From contig NZ_RCCV01000003.1 of the NCBI RefSeq assembly GCF_003664255.1, positions 434,001 through 498,000 of the forward strand: a stretch of 64,000 bases of DNA, in the 5' to 3' direction. Made by a program: the position numbers and the translations under genes. The notes beneath the pieces were generated by a model. That model saw only the letters and a list, made by a program, of their open reading frames with translations, searched no databases and was not told the DNA's origin. Source of the DNA: Micromonospora sp. M71_S20 (GTDB lineage: Bacteria > Actinomycetota > Actinomycetes > Mycobacteriales > Micromonosporaceae). Positions 46,918 to 58,283 of this stretch are shown piece by piece (position 1 is the first letter of the stretch; every line of letters begins with the position of its first letter).

Positions 46918-47973
<1,056 letters not shown>

Positions 47974-48217
47974 GGGCCTCCTCCTCGTCGCCGGACGGCA
48001 GCTCTGTATAGAGCAGCTGGACCCGCCGTAGGGTTCGCGACGCCGAGCCTCGTCTGCCGCAGAAATCTCACTGGTCTCTCAGGCTAACCATGTTTGTCGC
48101 TGTCGCCGACCCCTGCCGGTAGTCCGTCGATTACGCCCCCAAAGTTTCGCCGGTCGGGGTACGCATGAGCCCGTGCCAAGCGGGTAGTCGCCGCTCCTGT
48201 TCCGGACGGGAGCGAAC

Positions 48218-49837
48218 ATGACGGACTCGACGCTGCCGATCAACATCGGCTACTGGCTGCTGGCGTTCAGTCCCATCGTGCTGCTGTTGGTCCTGCTGGC
48301 GGTGCTGCGCTGGAAGGCGCCGGAGGCCGGTCCCGTCGGGATGCTCCTGGCCGCCGTGGTCGCGCTCGTGTTCTTCCGTACGCCGTTCGAGACCCTCGCC
48401 GTGGGTGTCGGCAAGGGCATCTGGGACGCGGTGTTCATCCTGTTGGTGATCTGGCCGGCGTTGCTGCTCTACCGGGTGGGCACGGCTGCTGGCGCCTTCG
48501 ACGCGCTACGCCGGGGACTGTCCCGGTACAGCCGTAACCACGTCTTCCTGGTCCTCGGGTTCGGCTGGGTGTTCGCCTCCTTCATGCAGGGCATCGCCGG
48601 CTTCGGCGCACCGATCGCAATCGTGGCGCCGTTGCTGCTGGCCGTCGGGGTGCGACCCGTCTACGCCGTCGCCATCCCGCTGATCGGGCACGCCTGGGCG
48701 AACATGTTCGGCACCTTGGCGGTCGGCTGGATCGCCACCTTGCAAGTGGTCGACCTGGACGACGAAATCAGCACCGCACTCATCACCGCGGTGCTGCTCG
48801 CCCCGGTGACGTTGATGGCCGGGGTCACCATCGCCTGGATGGCCGGGAAGGGGCGCGGGGTGCGGGTCGCCTGGCCGCTCATCCTGATCATCTCGGCGCT
48901 GCACGCCGGACTGCAGTTCGTGATCATGTACTGGGAGCCGCTGCTGTCCGCCTTCCTCGCCAGCACCGTCGCGCTGGCGGCGCTCTACCCGCTGTCGCGC
49001 TGGTCGCGCTACCGGGAGCCGGCCCGCGACGTCCGGGAACGCCCCGCCATGCGCGACGACGCCGGTGAGGGCGACGAGGCGGAGAGCGAGCCGACCATGG
49101 GACTCGGTTGGGCATTGCTGCCGTACGCCGTGCTGACCCTGGTGGCCGTCGTCACCCTCGCCGTACCGCCGGTGGTGGACCTGCTCGACCAGATCGAGTT
49201 CGGTCCGCCCTTCCCGGGGGCGGACACCGGATTCGACGTGGTGAACGAAGGTGAGCGGCCCTACTCGCCGATCGCCCCGTTCACCCACCCGGGCTTCCCG
49301 TTGGCTGTCGCGGTGCTGACCACCTGGCTGGTCTACCGGGCGCGAGGCTTCTACGCGGCACGCCGGAGGCAGGAGGGAAGCCAGCCGATCTGGTCGAGCC
49401 TCGCCACCGACGCCACCCCGGCGTCGGTGGCCATCCTGTCGTTCCTGGTGCTCGCCGCCGTCATGGAGCATTCGGGGCAGACCGACGTGCTGGCCCAGGG
49501 GCTGGAACAGGTCTCGCCCCCGCTCGTATACGCGTTCCTGGCAAATGTCGTCGGGCTGATCGGCGCCTTCATGACCTCCAGCAACACCGCCTCCAACGTG
49601 CTCTTCGCCCAGTTGCAGCAGGGCGTCGCCGCCGGAACCGGGCTCTCCGGTAACGCCGTGGTGGCCGCGCAGAGCGCCGGCGGCGCGATCGGCAACGCCG
49701 TCGCCCCAGCCAACATCGTCCTCGGCACCGGCACCGCCGGCATCGTCGGGCAGGAAGGCGCCGTGCTGCGCAAGACCCTGCCCTGGACGGTGGCCGCCGC
49801 GGTGGTGATCGGTCTGCTGACTCTGCTCTTCGTCTGA
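48218..49837 (+). CDS. LctP-family (lactate permease type) transporter
   Basis: A 539-residue membrane protein with about 13 helices of the LctP family, which imports L-lactate, D-lactate or glycolate with protons. Family blocks: FASFMQGIAGFGAPIAIVAP, GHAWANMFGTLAVGW, and near the end GAFMTSSNTASNVLFAQLQ and AQSAGGAIGNAVAPANIVLG. An acidic cytoplasmic loop (about 270-290) is present. It opens a ten-gene unit, so the substrate may be a 2-hydroxy/2-oxo acid analogue handled by the amidases downstream rather than lactate. RBS GGGAG; ATG 48218. Confidence 0.88.
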   Translation: MTDSTLPINIGYWLLAFSPIVLLLVLLAVLRWKAPEAGPVGMLLAAVVALVFFRTPFETLAVGVGKGIWDAVFILLVIWPALLLYRVGTAAGAFDALRRGLSRYSRNHVFLVLGFGWVFASFMQGIAGFGAPIAIVAPLLLAVGVRPVYAVAIPLIGHAWANMFGTLAVGWIATLQVVDLDDEISTALITAVLLAPVTLMAGVTIAWMAGKGRGVRVAWPLILIISALHAGLQFVIMYWEPLLSAFLASTVALAALYPLSRWSRYREPARDVRERPAMRDDAGEGDEAESEPTMGLGWALLPYAVLTLVAVVTLAVPPVVDLLDQIEFGPPFPGADTGFDVVNEGERPYSPIAPFTHPGFPLAVAVLTTWLVYRARGFYAARRRQEGSQPIWSSLATDATPASVAILSFLVLAAVMEHSGQTDVLAQGLEQVSPPLVYAFLANVVGLIGAFMTSSNTASNVLFAQLQQGVAAGTGLSGNAVVAAQSAGGAIGNAVAPANIVLGTGTAGIVGQEGAVLRKTLPWTVAAAVVIGLLTLLFV

Positions 49838-49853
49838 CGAAAGGGAGACCGCC

Positions 49854-50039
49854 GTGAACGAACTGCGTTGGCTGCTGCTGGCCTTGATGCTCTTCCTCGT
49901 CGCGCTGCCGGCGCTCAGCGCGGGCACCGAGACCGACGTGCCACCGCTGTGGTGGTCTGGCCTGGCGCTGGTCACGGCGGCCGGGCTCATCCCGGTGGCG
50001 CTGCGCTACACGCCCTCCGGCGACGACGGGGAGGACTGA
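49854..50039 (+). CDS. Small two-helix membrane protein
   Basis: A 61-residue protein with two hydrophobic helices (about 5-22 and 33-50), a short TETDVPP loop and an acidic tail SGDDGED. It lies 16 nt after the permease and 3 nt before the amidase, with AAGGGAG as RBS before GTG 49854. No known family; an accessory subunit of the permease is a reasonable guess. Confidence 0.7.
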   Translation: MNELRWLLLALMLFLVALPALSAGTETDVPPLWWSGLALVTAAGLIPVALRYTPSGDDGED

Positions 50040-50042
50040 CCG

Positions 50043-50861
50043 GTGTCGCGCTTCCACGAGATCTACGCCGACACCGGCGACGGCGGAGTCCAGCTCGGCG
50101 CCAGCGCCGACCGCTGGCATCTGTACGAGGACTTCGTCCACCTGTCACCCCATCACACCGAGGGGAGGCTGGTCCGCTTTGAGGCGGAGCTGCTGCCGTT
50201 CGTCGACAACCTGAACCGGGGCGCGCTGGCGGTGGTGGACATGCAGAACGACTTCTGCGCCCCCGGCGGATGGACCGAGCGCTCGGGGTTCGACCACGAG
50301 GCGTGCCGGGCCGCGATCCCCGGCGTGCGGCGGGCGGTCGAGGCAGCGCGGCAGCACGGCATGTTCGTCATCTGGATCTATTGGCATAACCGCCCCGACC
50401 TGCGCAATCTCGGTGCTCCCACATTGCATTCGTTCAAGCACCGGCTGGATCAGCGGGGCATCGGCGAGGAACTGGAACACGGCCGGGTGCTGACCGCCGG
50501 CTCGTGGGGTGCCCGGATGGTCGACGAACTGCAGGACTGCATCGACGACGACGACATCCACGTGGAGAAGGTGCGGATGAGCGGCTTCTACGGCACCCAC
50601 CTCGACCAGGTGCTGCGTACCCAGGGCATCCAGACCCTCTTCGTCTGCGGCGTCAACGCCGACCAGTGCGTCAGCACCACGCTGGAGGACGCCTACTTCC
50701 GCGACTACAACCCGGTGCTCATCGCCGACGCCACCGCCACCTCCAGTCCCGCGTACTGCAAGGAAGCCGTGGTCTTCAACACCAAGCAGTGCTGGGGCTT
50801 CGTCACCACCACCGACGGGTTCGCCAACCCGCGGCCGTACTCACCGGAGGGCACGACATGA
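50043..50861 (+). CDS. Isochorismatase-fold cysteine amidohydrolase
   Basis: A 272-residue hydrolase. The catalytic triad is complete: D66 (VVDMQNDFC), K176 (HVEKVRMSGF) and C209 (GVNADQCVSTTLEDAY), with the usual cis-peptide region before the Cys. Members include ureidoacrylate, biuret and N-carbamoylsarcosine amidases and nicotinamidase; all split amide or carbamoyl C-N bonds. It has an extra N-terminal segment of about 60 residues. GTG 50043; the stop overlaps the next start by 4 nt. Confidence 0.88.
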   Translation: MSRFHEIYADTGDGGVQLGASADRWHLYEDFVHLSPHHTEGRLVRFEAELLPFVDNLNRGALAVVDMQNDFCAPGGWTERSGFDHEACRAAIPGVRRAVEAARQHGMFVIWIYWHNRPDLRNLGAPTLHSFKHRLDQRGIGEELEHGRVLTAGSWGARMVDELQDCIDDDDIHVEKVRMSGFYGTHLDQVLRTQGIQTLFVCGVNADQCVSTTLEDAYFRDYNPVLIADATATSSPAYCKEAVVFNTKQCWGFVTTTDGFANPRPYSPEGTT

Positions 50862-52516
50862 CGGCACCGCACGGACCCCGCACCGGCCGGCCGCCAACCC
50901 GGGCCGACCGTGGGGCGGTCTCCTCACCGCACGTGCTGGCCAGCGGCGCCGGACTGGCCGTGCTGCGCCGGGGCGGCAGCGCGGTGGACGCCGCGATCGC
51001 GGTCAACGCACTGCTCTGCGTGGCCTACCCGCACATGGCCGGTCTCGGCGGCGACGGATTCTGGCTGATCGCCGGCCCGAACGGCGCGGTGCAGGCGCTC
51101 AACGCCTCCGGGCCGGCCGCCGCCGCCGCGACCCGCGACTGGTACGCCGAGCGCGGCCACACCGAGCAGGTGCCGGTGCGGGGACCGCTGTCCGCGCTGA
51201 CCGTCCCGGGCGCCGTGGACGGCTGGCGGCTGGCCCACGAACGGCACGGCCGGCTGGCCTGGGCCGATCTCTTCGACGACGCAGTGCACTACGCCCGGCA
51301 CGGGATACCGGTGTCCCGTTCGCTCAGCGACTGGCTGGTCGAGGATCTGGAGCTGCTCTGTGCGGAGGAGAGCACCCGGCGCCTCGTGCCCGCCGGACGG
51401 GCGCTGCGCGAGGGGGACCGTCTGCGCCAGCCGGAGCTGGCCACCTCGCTCGAGGCCGTCGCCGCACACGGCGCCCGCGGTGGGTTCTACGAGGGCGAGC
51501 TCGGACGGCGGTTCTGCCAGGCATTGGCGGCGGGCGGATCCCCGCTGCACCCCGACGACCTGGCCGCCTACCACGCCCAGTGGGAGGAGCCGATCAGCAC
51601 CGACTACCGCGGTCACACCGTGTACGAGCTGCACCCCAACACGCAGGGCTTCGCCGCTCTGCAGATCCTCAACCTGGTCGAGGGCTTCGACGTGGCGGCC
51701 TGGGGCGACGGCACGCCCGACTACTACCACCACCTCGCCGAGGCGGTGAAGCTCGCCTTCGCCGACCGGGACGAGTGGCTGACCGACCGGCATTGGGTGG
51801 ACATCCCGCTGCCCGAGCTGCTCGACAAGGAGTACGCGGCCCGCCGCCGCGCCCTGATCCGCCCCGATCGGGCCATGGTGATGGACGAGGTGGAGCCAGG
51901 GCTCCGGTTCTCCCCCCACGGGCACCGCCGCGACGCACCCGGCGGCGACACCTGCGCGTTCACCGCCGTCGACCGGGACGGGCTGGTCGTCTCGGTCATC
52001 CAGTCCATCTACCACGACTTCGGCAGCGCGGTCACCGCCGGCGACACTGGGATCATCCCGCAGAACCGGGGTTCGTTCTTCTCCCTCGACGAGACGCACC
52101 CCAACCGGATGGAACCCGGCAAACGCACCTTCCACACGCTGATCCCCGGGCTCGTCTGCCGGGACGGACAGCCCTGGCTCGCCTTCGGCAGCATGGGCGG
52201 CGAGGGTCAACCGCAGACCCACGCCGCCCTGCTGACCCGCCTGATCGACTTCGGCTACGACGTCCAGCAGGCCATCGAGGCGCCGCGTTGGCTGATGGGG
52301 CACACCTGGGGAACCACGATCAAGGACCTCTCCCTGGAGGGCCGGATCGGCGACGAGGTCGCCCGGGAACTGCAACGCCGCCGACAGCCGGTGCGGATGC
52401 TGCCCAGCTGGGACGACAACATGGGCCACGCGCACGCCATCCTGATCGACACCGAACGGGGGCTGCTGGAGGCCGGCGCCGACCCGCGCGGCGACGGCGC
52501 CGCCCTCGGCTACTGA
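50858..52516 (+). CDS. Gamma-glutamyltransferase-family Ntn hydrolase
   Basis: A 552-residue member of the GGT family. Self-cleavage should occur before T365 in APGGDTCAFTAVDRDG, giving a large and a small subunit. The oxyanion region reads FGSMGGEGQPQTH instead of the PGGSRI of true GGTs, which suggests an amidase specificity other than glutathione; the family also holds oxamate amidohydrolase (HpxW) and cephalosporin acylases. There is no signal peptide, again unlike secreted GGTs. Coupled by ATGA to the isochorismatase gene. Confidence 0.87.
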   Translation: MTAPHGPRTGRPPTRADRGAVSSPHVLASGAGLAVLRRGGSAVDAAIAVNALLCVAYPHMAGLGGDGFWLIAGPNGAVQALNASGPAAAAATRDWYAERGHTEQVPVRGPLSALTVPGAVDGWRLAHERHGRLAWADLFDDAVHYARHGIPVSRSLSDWLVEDLELLCAEESTRRLVPAGRALREGDRLRQPELATSLEAVAAHGARGGFYEGELGRRFCQALAAGGSPLHPDDLAAYHAQWEEPISTDYRGHTVYELHPNTQGFAALQILNLVEGFDVAAWGDGTPDYYHHLAEAVKLAFADRDEWLTDRHWVDIPLPELLDKEYAARRRALIRPDRAMVMDEVEPGLRFSPHGHRRDAPGGDTCAFTAVDRDGLVVSVIQSIYHDFGSAVTAGDTGIIPQNRGSFFSLDETHPNRMEPGKRTFHTLIPGLVCRDGQPWLAFGSMGGEGQPQTHAALLTRLIDFGYDVQQAIEAPRWLMGHTWGTTIKDLSLEGRIGDEVARELQRRRQPVRMLPSWDDNMGHAHAILIDTERGLLEAGADPRGDGAALGY

Positions 52517-52527
52517 CCGCCGCCGGC

Positions 52528-55269
52528 ATGATCCTGGCGGTTGCCCTCGTCTGGCAGTTCGCACTCGCGGCCTGCGTTCCCCTGCTGACCCGTCGGCTGG
52601 GCCGCGACGCCGGATATCCGTTGGCCGCCGGGTTCCTGCTCACGGCCGGGCTGCTGCTGCTTCCACTCCCGATGCTCCTCGCCGACGCGACGGTCACGGT
52701 GGACTGGAGGTGGTTGCCCTCGCTGGACGTCTCGGCCGCCCTGCGAATGGACGCCCTCGCCCTCGTGTTCGCTCTGCTGGTGCTCGGGGTGGGCGTCCTC
52801 ATCATGGCCTACTGCCCGCGCTACCTGGGTCGCGAGGCGTCGCACACACGGATCTACCTGCTGCTGACCCTCTTCGCGACCGCGATGCTCGGCCTGGTCC
52901 TCGCCAACGACCTGCTGGTCCTGTTCGTCTTCTGGGAACTGACGTCGGTGCTGTCCTTCGTGCTGATCGGGCAGGGCCGGCCTGCCGCCGGGCCACCGGC
53001 GGTACAGGCGTTGCTGGTCACCTCGGGAGGCGGCCTGGCCCTGTTGACCGCCGTCGTGATCCTCACGCTCGACCTCGGCACCAGCGACCTCGGCCGTATC
53101 CTCGCCGATCCGGGGCGGCTGGACGGCGGGCCCGCCTGGGCCGTCGGCGCGCTTGTACTGGTCGCGGCCTTCACCAAGTCGGCGCAGGTGCCGTTCCACT
53201 TCTGGCTGCCCGGCGCCATGGTCGCCATCACGCCGGTCAGCGCCTACCTGCACGCGGCTACCATGGTCAAGGCCGGCATCTACCTGCTGATGCGGTTCTC
53301 CGCCCTGTTCGGCGGTCGACCCGCGTGGAACCTGACGCTGCTTGCGGTCGGCCTGCTGACCGCCGTGCTCGGGGCTTTCCTGGCGTTGCGCCAGTACGAT
53401 CTCAAGGCGCTGCTCGCGTATTCCACGGTGAGTCAGCTCGGGCTGATCGTCGGGGTCGTCGGGGTGGGCACCCCCGCCTCGGACGCGGCCGCGATCCTGT
53501 ACACCGTCGCGCACGCGCTGTTCAAGGCGACGCTGTTCATGCTGGTCGGCATCATCGACCACGAGGCCGGCAGCCGGGACATCCGGGAGCTGTCCGGACT
53601 CCACCGGGTCATGCCCACGACGGCGGTGTTCACCGTCATCGCCGCCGCCACCATGGCCGGCCTGCCGCCGACGATCGGGTTCGTCGGCAAGGAGGCGATC
53701 TTCGAGGCGCTGGCCGAGGCTCACCAGCTACCCGGGTCCGGCCAGTTGGCGGCCGGGCTCGGGGTACTGGCCTCGGTGCTGACCTTCGCGTACGCGGCCC
53801 GACTGGTGCACGGCGTCTTCACCGGCCCGCTACGCCAGCAGGAACTGCGACCGCCACGGCGTTCGTTCGTGGCCCCCGCCGGGGTGGCCGCCGTACTGGC
53901 CGTCGCGCTGGGACCCCTTGTCGCCCTGCTCAGTCCGCTCGTCCAGCGCGCCGCGAACGACGCCCGACCTCAGGGCGAACCGCCGTACCTGGTGTTCTGG
54001 CACGGCTTCACCCTGGCTCTCGGGCTCTCCGCGCTCACCGTCGGGCTCGGGGCGCTGCTCTTCGTCCTGCACGCCCGGGTCGACCGGCTGCTGCGCCGCC
54101 TGCCCACCACGGTGCCCTTCGCCGTCTGGTTCGAGGCCGGCCGGGTGCGACTGTTGCACCTCGGCGCCCTGGTCGCCCGACCGGCCCGGGCCGCCAGCCC
54201 GGCGACGTTCCTGCTCCGGCCGGTGCTCGCGGTGCCGCTGCTGGCCGTGGTGGCCGCGGTCGGTCTCGGCCCGCTGCCAGCGCCCGTGGGCGAAGCGATC
54301 CGCCCCGGCGACGTGGTGCTGCTGGTCCTGCTCGTGGTGAGCCTGGCCGGGTTGGTCACGGTGCGCTCGGCACTGGGGGCGGTCGGCCTCACCGGCACGG
54401 TCGGACTCCTGCTGTCCGTCTGGTTCGTGACCGCGGGGGCGCCCGACGTCGCGCTGACGCTGATGCTGGTCGAGGTGCTCACCACCATCGTGGTGATGCT
54501 GGTGCTGCGCCGCCGCTCGCCGCGCCTGCCCCCGGGCGGCGCACCTCGTGCCTTGCTGCTCGGCGCCGTGCTCGCCGGTGCGACCGGACTGGCCGCGGCG
54601 GCCGGCACCGCGGCGCTGACCGGCCGGCGTGACCTGTCCGCGCCCGGCCGGTTCCTGCTGGCCGAGGCGACACCGACCACCGGCGGGAGCAACGTGGTCA
54701 ACACGATCCTGGTGGAGTTCCGCGCGCTGGACACGCTCGGCGAATCGGTGGTCCTGGCGGTCGTGGCGCTGGGGCTGGTCTCGCTCTCCGACCGGATCAC
54801 CCGACCCGGACGGGGCACCCGGGCCGGTTCCCCCGTCGACCCGGTGCTCGTGTTCGCCCACCGGTTACTCGCTCCGGTGATGCTGGTGGTGTCGGGCTTC
54901 CTCTTCGTACGCGGCCACGAGGAGATCGGGGGCGGGTTCATCGGTGCCCTGCTGGCCGGGACCGCGGTCGGGCTGGGCCACCTCGCCCACGCCGGTGCCC
55001 CGGCACCCCTGCTCGGCCGGTTGCGGAGCGGCCCGCTGCTGGTGGCGGGGCTACTGCTCTGTGTCGGTGTGGGATTGGCGGCGTTGCCGCTGGGCCGTCC
55101 GTTTCTCAGTCTCGGCAAGGTGGGTCTGCCCGGTGGGACGACCCTGCCGTTCTCCAGCAGCCTGCTGTTCGACCTCGGGATCTACCTGATCGTCCTCGGA
55201 TTGATCGTGGCAGCGGTCCGCCGGCTCGACCTGCCGACCCGACCGGCCCCGACGGGACGGCCGAGGTGA
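52528..55269 (+). CDS. mrpA: Mrp antiporter subunit MrpA with fused MrpB domain
   Basis: A 913-residue NuoL-like subunit of the multi-subunit Na+(K+)/H+ antiporter. Key residues: E137 (VFWELTSVLS) and K217 (FTKSAQVPFHFWLPGAM). The C-terminal third contains the MrpA-specific DUF4040 part (VALTLMLVEVLTTIVVMLVL) and, from about residue 773, a MrpB domain (VFAHRLLAPVMLVVSGFLFV, GHEEIGGGFIGALLAG), so no separate mrpB is present. ATG 52528 is 11 nt after the GGT-family gene. Its stop overlaps mrpC (GTGA). Confidence 0.92.
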   Translation: MILAVALVWQFALAACVPLLTRRLGRDAGYPLAAGFLLTAGLLLLPLPMLLADATVTVDWRWLPSLDVSAALRMDALALVFALLVLGVGVLIMAYCPRYLGREASHTRIYLLLTLFATAMLGLVLANDLLVLFVFWELTSVLSFVLIGQGRPAAGPPAVQALLVTSGGGLALLTAVVILTLDLGTSDLGRILADPGRLDGGPAWAVGALVLVAAFTKSAQVPFHFWLPGAMVAITPVSAYLHAATMVKAGIYLLMRFSALFGGRPAWNLTLLAVGLLTAVLGAFLALRQYDLKALLAYSTVSQLGLIVGVVGVGTPASDAAAILYTVAHALFKATLFMLVGIIDHEAGSRDIRELSGLHRVMPTTAVFTVIAAATMAGLPPTIGFVGKEAIFEALAEAHQLPGSGQLAAGLGVLASVLTFAYAARLVHGVFTGPLRQQELRPPRRSFVAPAGVAAVLAVALGPLVALLSPLVQRAANDARPQGEPPYLVFWHGFTLALGLSALTVGLGALLFVLHARVDRLLRRLPTTVPFAVWFEAGRVRLLHLGALVARPARAASPATFLLRPVLAVPLLAVVAAVGLGPLPAPVGEAIRPGDVVLLVLLVVSLAGLVTVRSALGAVGLTGTVGLLLSVWFVTAGAPDVALTLMLVEVLTTIVVMLVLRRRSPRLPPGGAPRALLLGAVLAGATGLAAAAGTAALTGRRDLSAPGRFLLAEATPTTGGSNVVNTILVEFRALDTLGESVVLAVVALGLVSLSDRITRPGRGTRAGSPVDPVLVFAHRLLAPVMLVVSGFLFVRGHEEIGGGFIGALLAGTAVGLGHLAHAGAPAPLLGRLRSGPLLVAGLLLCVGVGLAALPLGRPFLSLGKVGLPGGTTLPFSSSLLFDLGIYLIVLGLIVAAVRRLDLPTRPAPTGRPR

Positions 55270-55637
55270 CGGCCGCCGTCATGGTCGGCGTGCTGGTCGC
55301 CGCCGCCGTGCACCTGCTGCTCCAGCGTGGCCAGCTCCGGGTGATTCTCGGGTTCCTCCTGCTCGGCCACGCGGTCAACGTGCTGCTGCTCTCCGCTGGC
55401 GGGCTGGATCGCCGCACGCCCGCCTTCGAAGGCGGCGGCGAGGAGATGGCCGACCCGCTGCCGCAGGCATTCGCGCTGACCGCCATCGTGATCAGCTTCG
55501 GTATCACGCTCTACCTGCTCGGACTGCTCAGCGTGGACGGACCGACCGGAGGTGGCGAGCAGGGGACCGCCGAGGACCCTTGCGCCACCGAGGACGGGCA
55601 GGACGACGTGGGCGCCGAGGGCGGGGACGAACGGTGA
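55266..55637 (+). CDS. mrpC: Mrp antiporter subunit MrpC
   Basis: A 123-residue NuoK-like subunit with three helices; GFLLLGHAVNVLLLSAGG and LPQAFALTAIVISFGITLYL are the family blocks. The C-terminal 35 residues are an acidic cytoplasmic tail. It overlaps mrpA and mrpD by 4 nt each, so stoichiometric synthesis is likely. Confidence 0.92.
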   Translation: MTAAVMVGVLVAAAVHLLLQRGQLRVILGFLLLGHAVNVLLLSAGGLDRRTPAFEGGGEEMADPLPQAFALTAIVISFGITLYLLGLLSVDGPTGGGEQGTAEDPCATEDGQDDVGAEGGDER

Positions 55638-57100
55638 GCCGGCTGCTGGTCCTGCCGTTCGCCGGTCCGCTGCTGACCGCCGCGGTACTGCTCGCCGCGC
55701 CACGCCGCCGGACGGCGCACCGGGTGGCGGGCCTCGCCGTGACCGCCGCCGTCCTCTTCCTGGCCGTGGCGCTGCTGGTGGCCACGCGGGACGGCACGGT
55801 CGTGGCCGAGCGGATCGGCGGCTGGCACCCCCTGGTGGCGATCGGCTTCGCGGCCGACGCGTTCGGCGCGCTGATGGTCACCGTCTGCGCGGCGGTGGTG
55901 CTGGCCTGCCTCGCCACGGCCGCCGCATCCGGCGACGACAACGATCCACTCTTCGTGCCGCTGGTTCTCGTGCTGTCGGCCGGCGCCTACGGCGCCTTCC
56001 TCACCGCCGACCTGTTCAACCTGTTCGTGCTGGTCGAGGTCATGCTGGTGCCGTCCTACGCGCTCGTCGCGCTGGGCGGCGGCGCCACCCGGCTCGGCGC
56101 CGCCCGGGTCTACGTGGCGATGAACCTGCTCGCCTCCACCATCCTGCTGGCCGGGGTGGGGCTGGTCTACGGGGTGACCGGGACGGTGCGGTTCGGCGAC
56201 CTGGCGGCTGCCGCGCGCACCTCGCCCACGGTGGCCGTGGCCGCCGCCGTCGTGCTGTTGGCGCTGGCGGTCAAGAGCGCCGTCGTGCCCTGGCACGACT
56301 GGCTGCCCAGGACCTACCCCGAGGCGCCGCCCGTGGTGCTCGCGCTCTTCTCCGGGTTGCTCACCAAGGTCGGCCTCTACGCCCTGATCCGGGTCTACGC
56401 GCTCGTGTACGACGGCGATCCGGCGTACCACTGGGTGATCGGCGCCGCCGCGCTGCTCAGCATGGTGGTCGGGGTGCTTGGCGCGCTCGGTGAGGCCACC
56501 ATGCGCCGCGTGCTCACCTTCCACATGGTCAGCCAGATCGGGTACGTCCTGCTGGGACTGGCTCTGTTCACGGCCGCGAGCCTGGCTGCGGCGGTCTTCT
56601 ACCTCGTGCAGTACATCCTGGTGAAGACGGCGCTGTTCCTCTGCGCCGCGGCGGTGCACGCCAACCACGGCACTGACCGGCTGGATCGGCTCGGTGGCCT
56701 GTCCAGCCTGCATCCCGTGCTGGCGCTGGCCTTCGCCGGTGCCGCCCTCTCCCTGGCTGGACTTCCCCCGTTCTCCGGATTCGTGGCGAAGTTCCTGCTG
56801 ATCAGGGCGGTGGCCGACGCCGGGCAATGGGTGGCGGTGGCGGTGGCCGTCGGCGTCAGCCTGCTCACGTTGGCCTCGATGCTCAAGATCTGGGGCTCGG
56901 CGTTCTGGGGGGAGCCCCTCGGCCGAGAGGAGGCCGCCGGGCCCCGCCCGCTGGCCCGGACGGTGCTGCCGGCGTTGACCCTGGCAGTCGTGTCGTTGCT
57001 GCTCGGCCCGGTGGCCGAACCCCTCCTCGGGCTGGCCGACACGGCGGCGGCCGGTCTGCTCGATCCCGACGCCTACCTGGAGGCGGTGAACGGCCGATGA
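55634..57100 (+). CDS. mrpD: Mrp antiporter subunit MrpD
   Basis: A 488-residue NuoM/N-like subunit with about 14 helices. The essential Glu is in FVLVEVMLVPSYALVAL, the Lys in LAVKSAVVPWHDWLPRTYPE, and LLTKVGLYALIR carries the second Lys. It forms a proton channel of the antiporter. GTG 55634, overlapping mrpC; ends in ATGA overlap with mrpE. Confidence 0.92.
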   Translation: MSRLLVLPFAGPLLTAAVLLAAPRRRTAHRVAGLAVTAAVLFLAVALLVATRDGTVVAERIGGWHPLVAIGFAADAFGALMVTVCAAVVLACLATAAASGDDNDPLFVPLVLVLSAGAYGAFLTADLFNLFVLVEVMLVPSYALVALGGGATRLGAARVYVAMNLLASTILLAGVGLVYGVTGTVRFGDLAAAARTSPTVAVAAAVVLLALAVKSAVVPWHDWLPRTYPEAPPVVLALFSGLLTKVGLYALIRVYALVYDGDPAYHWVIGAAALLSMVVGVLGALGEATMRRVLTFHMVSQIGYVLLGLALFTAASLAAAVFYLVQYILVKTALFLCAAAVHANHGTDRLDRLGGLSSLHPVLALAFAGAALSLAGLPPFSGFVAKFLLIRAVADAGQWVAVAVAVGVSLLTLASMLKIWGSAFWGEPLGREEAAGPRPLARTVLPALTLAVVSLLLGPVAEPLLGLADTAAAGLLDPDAYLEAVNGR

Positions 57101-57504
57101 GCGTGGGCGCGGGACGGCGGGCGGTGGTGCGGGCCGGGCGGATACTGCGTTTCCTCGGATGGTTCGGGGCCCGCGTGGTGGTGGCCAACCTGGTGGTCGC
57201 CCGGGAGATCCTGACCCCGGGTTGGCGGCTGTGCCCGGCGATCGTGCGGGTGCCGCTGATCGAGGCGAGCAGCACCGAGCTGGCGCTGACGGCGCTCTGC
57301 GTCGGGCTGGTCCCGGGCACTCTCACGGTGGCCGTCCGGACGGCCCCACCAGTGCTCTTCGTGCACGGCATGTACGCCGACGATCCGGACGAGTTCCGCC
57401 GCGAGATCGTCGAACTTGAGCGGAAGCTGCTGCTGGCCGTGCGGCCCGTCGGCCGGGAGCCGACGACGTCCGCGCCCACGGTCGGCGACGTGGATGGGAG
57501 GTGA
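57097..57504 (+). CDS. mrpE: Mrp antiporter subunit MrpE
   Basis: A 135-residue subunit with two helices in the first half (ILRFLGWFGARVVVANLVVA) and the typical MrpE block LTALCVGLVPGTLTVAV followed by VLFVHGMY. The start ATG 57097 overlaps mrpD. It is needed for stable assembly of the complex. Confidence 0.88.
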   Translation: MSVGAGRRAVVRAGRILRFLGWFGARVVVANLVVAREILTPGWRLCPAIVRVPLIEASSTELALTALCVGLVPGTLTVAVRTAPPVLFVHGMYADDPDEFRREIVELERKLLLAVRPVGREPTTSAPTVGDVDGR

Positions 57505-57508
57505 GGAC

Positions 57509-57766
57509 GTGTTCCTGCTCGACGTGGCGCTCGTCGTCCTCGGGCTGTCGGCGTTGCCGGTGATCTGGCGACTGACCGTCGGCCCGACGGATGCGGACCG
57601 GGCGGCTGCCCTGGACCTGGCCTTCTTCGTCATCCTGGCCGCGGTGGCCGTGCTGTCCGCCCGGCTGGATTTCCCGGCCCTGCTGGACCTGGTGCTGACC
57701 GGCACCCTGGTGGCCTTCCTGGCCACGGTCGCCCTGGCCCGTCTGGTGCACCGGCGGTCGCGCTGA
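57509..57766 (+). CDS. mrpF: Mrp antiporter subunit MrpF
   Basis: An 85-residue three-helix protein (WRLTVGPTDADRAAALDLAF is the family signature). GTG 57509 is chosen because GGAGG ends 7 nt upstream; ATG 57494 lies on top of that RBS. It overlaps mrpG by one base (TGATG). Confidence 0.88.
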   Translation: MFLLDVALVVLGLSALPVIWRLTVGPTDADRAAALDLAFFVILAAVAVLSARLDFPALLDLVLTGTLVAFLATVALARLVHRRSR

Positions 57767-58152
57767 TGCGTACCGTGCTGGCGGCGATTCCGCTGCTCGT
57801 GGGCACGGGGCTGATCGCGGTGAGCGCTTTCGGTCTGCTCCGGTTGCCGGATGTCTACCACCGGATGAACGCGGTGGCCAAGGCGGCGAGCCTTGGCCTG
57901 GTGTGCGTCCTGTTGGGGGTGCTGGTGCTGGTCTTCGACGCCCGCAGCGCGGTGGTGGTCGCCGTGGCGATCGGACTGCAACTGGTCAGCGCGCCGGTGG
58001 GCGGCTACGCGCTGACTGTGGCGTCCTACCGGGCGGGCAGTCCTTTGGCGGCACTGACCCGATACGACGACCTCGCCGACGTCGAGCCCGGCCCACGTCC
58101 CGGGGGTGAGCGGCCGGGCGGCGAGACGACCGGCGGGCCAACGGGTGGGTAA
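57766..58152 (+). CDS. mrpG: Mrp antiporter subunit MrpG
   Basis: A 128-residue three-helix subunit with the MrpG block FGLLRLPDVYHRMNAVAKA. The last 30 residues are a Gly/Pro-rich cytoplasmic tail. It completes the set A(B)CDEFG and ends the ten-gene unit; no clear intrinsic terminator follows before the leuS leader at 58182. Confidence 0.9.
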   Translation: MRTVLAAIPLLVGTGLIAVSAFGLLRLPDVYHRMNAVAKAASLGLVCVLLGVLVLVFDARSAVVVAVAIGLQLVSAPVGGYALTVASYRAGSPLAALTRYDDLADVEPGPRPGGERPGGETTGGPTGG

Positions 58153-58232: not shown

Positions 58233-58283
58233 CGCGCTGATCCGCGACAGCACGGCCGCCCCTCCTGCGCGAGGGGTTTTTTT
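58223..58283 (+). promoter_or_regulatory. leuS transcription attenuator
   Basis: Stem 1: GCCGTGCTG (58223-58231) with CAGCACGGC (58248-58256), 9 perfect pairs, overlapping the end of the leader peptide. Terminator: CCCCTC (58259-58264), GAGGGG (58271-58276), then seven T. Stalling at the Leu codons would disturb stem 1 and hence the terminator equilibrium, letting polymerase reach leuS 67 nt later. An explicit antiterminator pairing is not resolved by eye. Confidence 0.78.

What the first reader, a model, noticed from the sequence alone, without database searches (positions are those of the whole stretch)
48218..58152. Ten-gene unit joining an LctP permease, two amide hydrolases and a complete Mrp antiporter
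Seen: lctP-like, 61-aa membrane protein, isochorismatase-fold hydrolase, GGT-family hydrolase, then mrpA(B)CDEFG, all on one strand. Junctions are 16, 3, -4, 11, -4, -4, -4, 4 and -1 nt, so one transcript is very likely. Known: LctP imports lactate/glycolate-type acids; both hydrolases break amide bonds; Mrp exchanges Na+ or K+ for H+. Inference: an imported amide-bearing carboxylate is hydrolysed in two steps, releasing ammonia and acid, and the antiporter handles the cation/pH load. I know of no described system of this composition. The segment also looks somewhat less GC-saturated than its flanks and sits between the MoxR operon and leuS, so it may be an insertion.
Basis: partly seen in the sequence, partly recalled or inferred. 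Interest (0 to 1): 0.8.

Follow-up and report, generated by a model that had tools for sequence, protein, structure and literature searches.

The report
Amide-uptake cassette beside Mrp sodium antiporter
Ten adjacent genes in a soil actinobacterium look like one transcript, but relatives show two separable parts: an importer with two hydrolases that probably strip nitrogen from a small oxamate-like acid, and an ordinary salt/pH antiporter.

Summary
In detail: ten co-directional genes at 48218-58152 with exactly the stated junctions, and a strong terminator-like hairpin after mrpG. The genome is Micromonospora, close to M. halophytica.

LctP, a small membrane protein and the GGT-family enzyme, usually with the isochorismatase-fold hydrolase (isoC), recur in Actinotalea, Rubrobacter, Qingshengfaniella and another Micromonospora with no mrp in the stretches read: a real cassette. 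The "GGT" lacks the gamma-glutamyl-binding residues; its best solved match by sequence (two chains summed) is HpxW, oxamate amidohydrolase. IsoC is nearest to biuret, triuret and ureidoacrylate hydrolases. Oxalurate to oxamate to oxalate plus ammonia is my best guess, unproven.

The moxR-leuS interval is a variable slot. Of the 30 loci with most similar leuS (own included), 19 hold none of these genes, 5 mrp (3 with the cassette), 5 isoC alone, 1 broken isoC. Four of 14 mrp-only intervals read keep a stub of the lctP start, one fused to the GGT end. So the cassette was lost repeatedly while mrp stayed, which argues against a recent insertion and against an obligate cassette-Mrp partnership.

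The parts
47974..48217 (+). moxR-lctP intergenic region, probable promoter and leader of the unit
   Evidence: Aligned in 8 genomes, 80% mean column identity. Kept in genomes that lost the trio. The conserved blocks may belong to the divergent moxR promoter. No sigma-70-like consensus found.
48218..49837 (+). lctP-like permease, 539 aa
   Evidence: PF02652 245 bits in two stretches; TIGR00795 246 bits, below its cut-off of 341. Divergent LctP subfamily; 5 of 151 Micromonospora genomes at E 1e-60.
49854..50039 (+). sm61, small membrane protein with two hydrophobic stretches; a relative follows 11 of the 12 distinct lctP copies read
   Evidence: No family in Pfam or NCBIfam at E 0.001. Ten aligned plus a 60-aa one in L156 7116-7298; the second lctP of L156 has none behind it. 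65 database relatives, 11 of whose contig lengths also occur in the LctP list against 0-1 in shifted controls. Hydropathy peaks at residues 7-23 and 34-50.
50043..50861 (+). isoC, cysteine hydrolase of isochorismatase fold, ureide-hydrolase branch
   Evidence: PF00857 136 bits. D66, K176, C209 invariant in 26 of 26. Nearest folds BiuH, TrtA, RutB.
50858..52516 (+). GGT-superfamily Ntn hydrolase, HpxW-like, 552 aa, no hydrophobic leader in the sequence
   Evidence: PF01019 481 bits. Thr365 invariant in 32 of 32. Gamma-glutamyl-binding positions replaced. Best solved relative by sequence 5HFT, titled 'Crystal structure of HpxW'.
52528..55269 (+). mrpA fused to mrpB
   Evidence: Proton_antipo_M, MbhD, MbhE, MnhB domains.
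55266..55637 (+). mrpC
   Evidence: PF00420.
55634..57100 (+). mrpD
   Evidence: PF00361; NF006238 669 bits, cut-off 626.
57097..57504 (+). mrpE
   Evidence: PF01899.
57509..57766 (+). mrpF
   Evidence: PF04066.
57766..58152 (+). mrpG
   Evidence: PF03334.
58258..58277 (+). terminator-like hairpin ending the unit before leuS
   Evidence: GCCCCTC/GAGGGGT stem then a T-tract; consensus scan only, as many sites found as expected by chance.

Best explanation
The unit is two modules sharing one transcript. Module 1 (lctP, sm61, isoC, GGT) imports a small amide- or ureido-bearing carboxylate and strips its nitrogen in the cytoplasm. The divergent LctP permease, with sm61 as a probable small partner subunit, brings it in; isoC cleaves an acyl-urea bond; the HpxW-like Ntn hydrolase cleaves the remaining amide. 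Best candidate: oxalurate to oxamate to oxalate, releasing ammonia and CO2, for nitrogen rather than carbon. Module 2 is a complete group-2 Mrp Na+(K+)/H+ antiporter that can stand alone and most likely serves general salt and pH balance. Shown from sequence: anatomy, recurrence, separability, loss scars, altered gamma-glutamyl pocket. Inferred: co-transcription, the sm61-LctP complex, the substrate, the direction of transport.
Against: No substrate was tested. The gamma-glutamyl-site replacements are shared by 2NLZ and 2I3O, so they exclude GGT but do not single out HpxW; the LctP-linked clade is separate from HpxW. In the large half HpxW leads E. coli GGT by only 196 to 194 bits, and as one chain 2NLZ scores highest (301 bits) and has the highest Z (44; the HpxW row is its large chain only, 26.6). 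TIGR00066 gamma-glutamyltransferase is passed (427 bits, cut-off 358). Close isoC genes are mostly solitary: only 2 of the 17 closest loci have the GGT within the stretch held, and isoC stands alone in the interval in 11 of 17 Micromonospora genomes. In D. ficus isoC pairs with a GGT of another lineage and a TauE/SafE carrier. R. radiotolerans adds an agmatinase-family gene, unexplained by oxalurate. No oxalyl-CoA decarboxylase above cut-off in any of 46 genomes, so oxalate would have to leave by another route.
Confidence: 0.42

Rival explanations
1. Same cassette logic, different substrate: another small amide or ureido acid (for example malonamate-, ureidoglycolate- or triuret-like), so 'oxalurate/oxamate' is the wrong name for the right kind of chemistry.
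For: The LctP-linked GGT clade is well supported and separate from HpxW (99/99). isoC lies below the RutB (143 vs 378 bits) and BiuH (122 vs 370) cut-offs. R. radiotolerans adds an agmatinase-family hydrolase.
Against: HpxW is the nearest functionally named relative by summed sequence score, and a relative of isoC sits in an HpxZ/amidase/HpxW-like cluster.
Confidence: 0.33
2. One reading: Mrp is part of the mechanism and discharges the sodium or pH load created by uptake and ammonia release.
For: The ten-gene order with 11-15 nt between GGT and mrpA is found in 4 genomes on both sides of the deepest leuS split. Trio and close mrp co-occur in 4 of 5 trio genomes against 25 of 146 others, Fisher p 0.005, relatedness not corrected. 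Qingshengfaniella has a CPA2 antiporter next to the cassette, on the other strand.
Against: No mrp match in the cassette stretches outside the interval; mrp persists alone in 14 intervals read, 4 with an lctP stub; isoC and close mrp are not associated (5 of 17 vs 24 of 134, p 0.32).
Confidence: 0.15
3. Mere juxtaposition in a variable interval: the moxR-leuS slot collects cargo and the cassette and mrp have nothing to do with each other, not even a shared transcript.
For: The interval holds none of these genes in 19 of the 30 closest leuS loci and different contents in others.
Against: Gaps of 11 nt and -4 overlaps, no terminator-like site between genes, and the same order kept across a deep split.
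Confidence: 0.07
4. The GGT-family enzyme is a genuine gamma-glutamyl or beta-lactam/N-acyl hydrolase, and the cassette scavenges or detoxifies such compounds.
Against: Gamma-glutamyl-binding Arg, Asn, Gln, Asp, Ser, Ser are Ser, Tyr, Arg, Phe, His, Thr; no hydrophobic leader in the sequence.
Confidence: 0.08

Closest known systems
Klebsiella hpx oxalurate branch of purine catabolism (HpxW oxamate amidohydrolase; HpxZ, HpxY)
   Same: Ntn hydrolase 45% identical to HpxW over the aligned stretches, with the same letters at 5 of 6 substrate-site positions; a wider isoC relative in Martelella sits in an HpxZ/amidase/HpxW-like cluster.
   Different: HpxZ found in 0 of 7 cassette genomes; no amidase gene in the unit; an LctP-type importer and isoC instead; GGT clade separate from HpxW.
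RutB, BiuH and TrtA ureide hydrolases (isochorismatase fold)
   Same: Fold and catalytic Asp-Lys-Cys; nearest solved structures.
   Different: About 40 residues more at the N-terminus than RutB in the alignment; scores far below the RutB and BiuH equivalog cut-offs.
LctP/LldP/GlcA lactate-glycolate permeases
   Same: Pfam Lactate_perm in two stretches.
   Different: Below the TIGR00795 subfamily cut-off; followed by a conserved small membrane protein.
Group-2 Mrp antiporter (A and B fused), as in the Salinispora marine-adaptation genes (PMC3314556, passages read)
   Same: Six genes with fused mrpAB, as that paper describes for Salinispora.
   Different: Here preceded by the cassette; not shown to be the same locus or lineage as in Salinispora.

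Membership tests
gamma-glutamyltransferase (GGT) | Ntn-hydrolase fold with N-terminal Thr nucleophile of the small subunit | tested here: met
gamma-glutamyltransferase (GGT) | gamma-glutamyl-binding residues (E. coli numbering R114, N411, Q430, D433, S462, S463; recalled) | tested here: not met
   S, Y, R, F, H, T in the window.
gamma-glutamyltransferase (GGT) | NCBIfam TIGR00066 cut-off | tested here: met
   427 bits against 357.85. The HpxW-like Martelella protein scores 313, below it.
HpxW oxamate amidohydrolase | sequence closest to HpxW among solved relatives | tested here: met
   5HFT first in both halves: small 174 vs 128 bits, large 196 vs 194 for E. coli GGT. As one chain 2NLZ is first, 301 bits.
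HpxW oxamate amidohydrolase | falls in the HpxW clade | tested here: not met
   5HFT pairs with Martelella (100/100); the window lies in a separate nine-row clade (99/99).
HpxW oxamate amidohydrolase | hydrolyses oxamate | not testable with these tools
   Needs an enzyme assay.
RutB ureidoacrylate amidohydrolase / BiuH biuret hydrolase | Asp-Lys-Cys catalytic triad | tested here: met
   D66, K176, C209 invariant in 26 of 26; their catalytic role is taken from the family (recalled).
RutB ureidoacrylate amidohydrolase / BiuH biuret hydrolase | NCBIfam equivalog cut-offs | tested here: not met
   RutB 142.6 vs 377.95; BiuH 122.3 vs 370.
LctP lactate permease | Pfam Lactate_perm gathering score | tested here: met
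   245.4 bits against 27.
LctP lactate permease | TIGR00795 subfamily cut-off | tested here: not met
   245.7 against 341.15.
Mrp antiporter, group 2 | all subunits A-G present, A and B fused | tested here: met
Mrp antiporter, group 2 | Na+ or K+ / H+ exchange | not testable with these tools
   Needs vesicle or complementation assays.
hpx oxalurate pathway | HpxZ present | tested here: not met
   0 of 7 cassette genomes; control found in 1 of 14.

The most novel reading that the evidence does not exclude
A widely scattered, undescribed cassette (LctP-type permease plus small partner subunit, HpxW-like Ntn hydrolase, BiuH/RutB-like ureide hydrolase) salvages oxalurate/oxamate-type fragments of oxidised purines. 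This would explain its turning up in Rubrobacter radiotolerans (with an agmatinase-like enzyme that could take a guanidino fragment), isoC on four Deinococcus plasmids, and saline- or alkaline-soil organisms. The small protein would make LctP a two-component carrier.
Probability: 0.13. Interest if true: 0.7.

Novelty: new variant of a known kind. Interest (0 to 1): 0.42.

Why it matters
If right, it gives LctP-family permeases a role beyond lactate and glycolate, names a conserved small partner protein for them, and supplies a route by which bacteria outside the classical purine pathways take up and hydrolyse oxamate- or oxalurate-like compounds; no title listed in the paper searches is about a carrier for either. 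It also questions the usual names ('gamma-glutamyltransferase', 'glutathione hydrolase') in this clade. The locus is a tidy natural experiment in operon decay: one conserved interval, two modules, stubs left at several losses.

Tried and rejected
Recent insertion: rejected, because mrp-only relatives keep lctP stubs and one keeps the lctP start fused to the GGT end. A decay stub of sm61 upstream of isoC in G036 was dropped: the match lies in a tandem repeat. One search also gave weak matches to pieces of mrp and GGT in four gaps (L109, L135, L137, L145); not used. G036 mrpA looked split but one frame is open throughout. Oxalate use through oxalyl-CoA decarboxylase: no match over the cut-off in 46 genomes (weaker matches in all 46, and in 14 of 14 controls). 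Internal production of oxalurate by AllD: none over the cut-off in 7 genomes, weaker matches in 2. Riboswitch or other RNA: none at gathering score in 40000-64000. sigma-70 promoter scan: none found, uninformative for this organism. Papers: 0 hold gamma-glutamyltransferase, isochorismatase and lactate permease together; 4 hold oxamate, transporter and lactate permease, 3 listed, none on oxamate transport by title; small subunit with symporter and LctP gave 5, none on this by title. PMC12625717, PMC11326118, PMC5270733 and PMC3314556: passages only. Hicks and Ealick 2016 on HpxW is not held; I saw it only as cited in PMC5270733 and recall its abstract. Fold-search absences were not used.
Full report
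OBSERVATION. Pfam supports nine of ten; the 61-aa protein has no family. The window lies in a 7.8-Mb genome, and M. halophytica (L004) carries the same block at 78-94% identity per gene. A terminator-like hairpin with a T-tract follows mrpG at 58258-58277; the scan as a whole found 3 sites against 2.7 expected, so this rests on its quality and place. GC3 of the ten genes is 0.85-0.94, against 0.96-0.98 in moxR, DUF58 and leuS.

HOW COMMON. In 151 Micromonospora genomes (same GTDB genus, window's own included): isoC in 18 at E 1e-40, 17 of them at least 63% identical; GGT in 5 at E 1e-100; lctP in 5 at E 1e-60, the same five genomes. A close mrpA (66% or more, my count from the rows) is in 29; 147 have some mrpA at E 1e-100. 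In a sample of 396 Actinomycetota, GGT is found in 6 at E 1e-110 and lctP in 6 at E 1e-60, the window's genome included; four genomes have both. The cassette is rare.

THE INTERVAL. Between moxR (reverse strand) and leuS I found, by tblastn on the loci fetched: lctP-sm-isoC-GGT-mrp in the window, L004, L106 and L107 (lctP broken in L107); isoC-mrp in L109; isoC alone in 11 of the 17 close-isoC genomes; mrp alone in 14 loci. I fetched 15 of the 24 genomes with close mrp and no close isoC; one of the 15 (L146) has its mrp elsewhere, and 9 were not read. In the 17th isoC genome, G136, the cassette is elsewhere (L108). Among the 30 loci with the most similar leuS, own included, 19 show none of these genes (in those measured, gaps of about 400-600 bases to moxR), 5 have mrp next to leuS (3 of these are cassette genomes), 5 have isoC alone, and 1 has isoC in two pieces. 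So moxR and leuS are fixed and the content varies.

SCARS. In G025 (L134, mrp only) the sequence matches the window from the moxR side through the first codons of lctP (window 47851-48236) and then continues at the last codons of GGT and mrpA (52495-52716), with a 9-nt overlap: a deletion of about 4.26 kb took the cassette and left mrp. G090, G059 and G101 keep an lctP N-terminus upstream of mrp: alignment scores 63, 41 and 37 against a maximum of 30 in 500 shuffles (triplets shuffled); G025 scores only 18 on the coding part but 86 with the upstream part, against a maximum of 26. The other 10 of 14 mrp-only intervals show no convincing stub, and neither do the solitary-isoC intervals tested. 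On a leuS tree of 41 rows, midpoint-rooted, cassette genomes and stub genomes lie on both sides of the deepest split (100/99); leuS is one gene, and exchange at the conserved flanks is an alternative to vertical loss. The window's two nearest relatives by leuS (G086, G094) have none of these genes. An isoC tree puts G036 (isoC-mrp) with G061 (cassette-mrp), support 94/97, and the solitary leuS-linked isoC genes together, 99/99.

THE CASSETTE ELSEWHERE. lctP-small protein-GGT-isoC in this order (in the window isoC precedes GGT): Micromonospora G136 (L108), Actinotalea MAG (L007), Rubrobacter radiotolerans plasmid (L159, the same DNA as L154; preceded by an agmatinase-family gene) and Rubrobacter G226 (L155). 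lctP-small-GGT without isoC: Qingshengfaniella alkalisoli. More distant: GGT-lctP-small in Paracoccus alcaliphilus (lctP 37%) and GGT beside two lctP in G266 (about 51%), one of them followed by a small protein of the same kind. GGT without LctP, beside an oxalate/formate-family MFS carrier that stays below the family cut-off: the haloarchaeon Salinigranum marinum. None of these nine stretches (6.5-21.6 kb) has an mrp match at E 1e-3; the Actinotalea contig is only 6.5 kb. The best 120 LctP and best 120 GGT homologues share 16 contig lengths against 0-3 with shifted lengths. The small protein's homologues share 11 of 65 contig lengths with the LctP list against 0-1. The core is therefore LctP-small protein-GGT; isoC is a frequent but optional partner. 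Of the 17 isoC loci above 55% identity, only 2 have this GGT in the stretch held; of all 80, 14 have some GGT-family match.

THE GGT-LIKE ENZYME. Thr365 is invariant in 32 of 32. Six positions that bind the gamma-glutamyl group in E. coli GGT (numbers recalled) are S, Y, R, F, H, T here; HpxW has S, Y, R, A, H, T; the B. halodurans acylase 2NLZ and the T. acidophilum protein 2I3O have the same letters except at the fourth. By sequence 5HFT is first in both halves, narrowly in the large one (196 against 194 bits for E. coli GGT); as a single chain 2NLZ scores higher. 5HFT is titled 'Crystal structure of HpxW'. Identity to 5HFT is 45% over aligned stretches, to E. coli GGT 34%. In the tree the cassette clade is separate from HpxW. 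The protein shows no hydrophobic leader, which fits a cytoplasmic role. PMC5270733 (passages) states that HpxW releases oxalate and ammonium from oxamate.

MECHANISM. My reading is import of a small ureido or amide carboxylate and its hydrolysis for nitrogen. Oxalurate then oxamate is the candidate that fits both enzymes and the carrier, since oxamate is a lactate/pyruvate analogue (recalled). Against it: no assay, HpxZ found in 0 of 7, no oxalyl-CoA decarboxylase over cut-off in 46 genomes, and the agmatinase neighbour is unexplained. The Mrp module is complete and of the fused-A/B type; PMC3314556 (passages) describes such an Mrp in Salinispora as a marine-adaptation set. G043, a 5.2-Mb genome with mrp at this place and no cassette, may be a Salinispora; that is inference from genome size only.

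VERDICT. The trio is a recurring cassette; one full-text search for its three family names together found no paper. The ten-gene 'system' is an old, probably co-transcribed pairing of two separable modules, not a recent insertion and not an obligate partnership.

Noticed in passing
L203-L206; Close isoC homologues (64-68%) on plasmids of four Deinococcus strains and in Rubrobacter radiotolerans, all radiation-tolerant lineages (recalled).
   Followed up: partly
L159 6849-7997: An agmatinase-family hydrolase (169 bits to TIGR01230, cut-off 174) sits 39 nt upstream of lctP in the R. radiotolerans cassette; its substrate is unexplained.
   Followed up: no
window 49854-50039: A 61-aa protein with two hydrophobic stretches, conserved next to this LctP type, has no Pfam or NCBIfam model; 65 relatives found.
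   Followed up: partly
window 48064-48095: A block of about 30 bases upstream of moxR and lctP is almost unchanged in all 8 genomes aligned; it may be the moxR promoter.
   Followed up: no
G000:C1:757013-759757 and C1:1989310-1992060: The window's genome holds two further, more distant mrpA genes besides the one in the window.
   Followed up: no
L191 4648-4987: isoC between moxR and leuS in G067 is broken into two frames, a further sign of decay in the interval.
   Followed up: no
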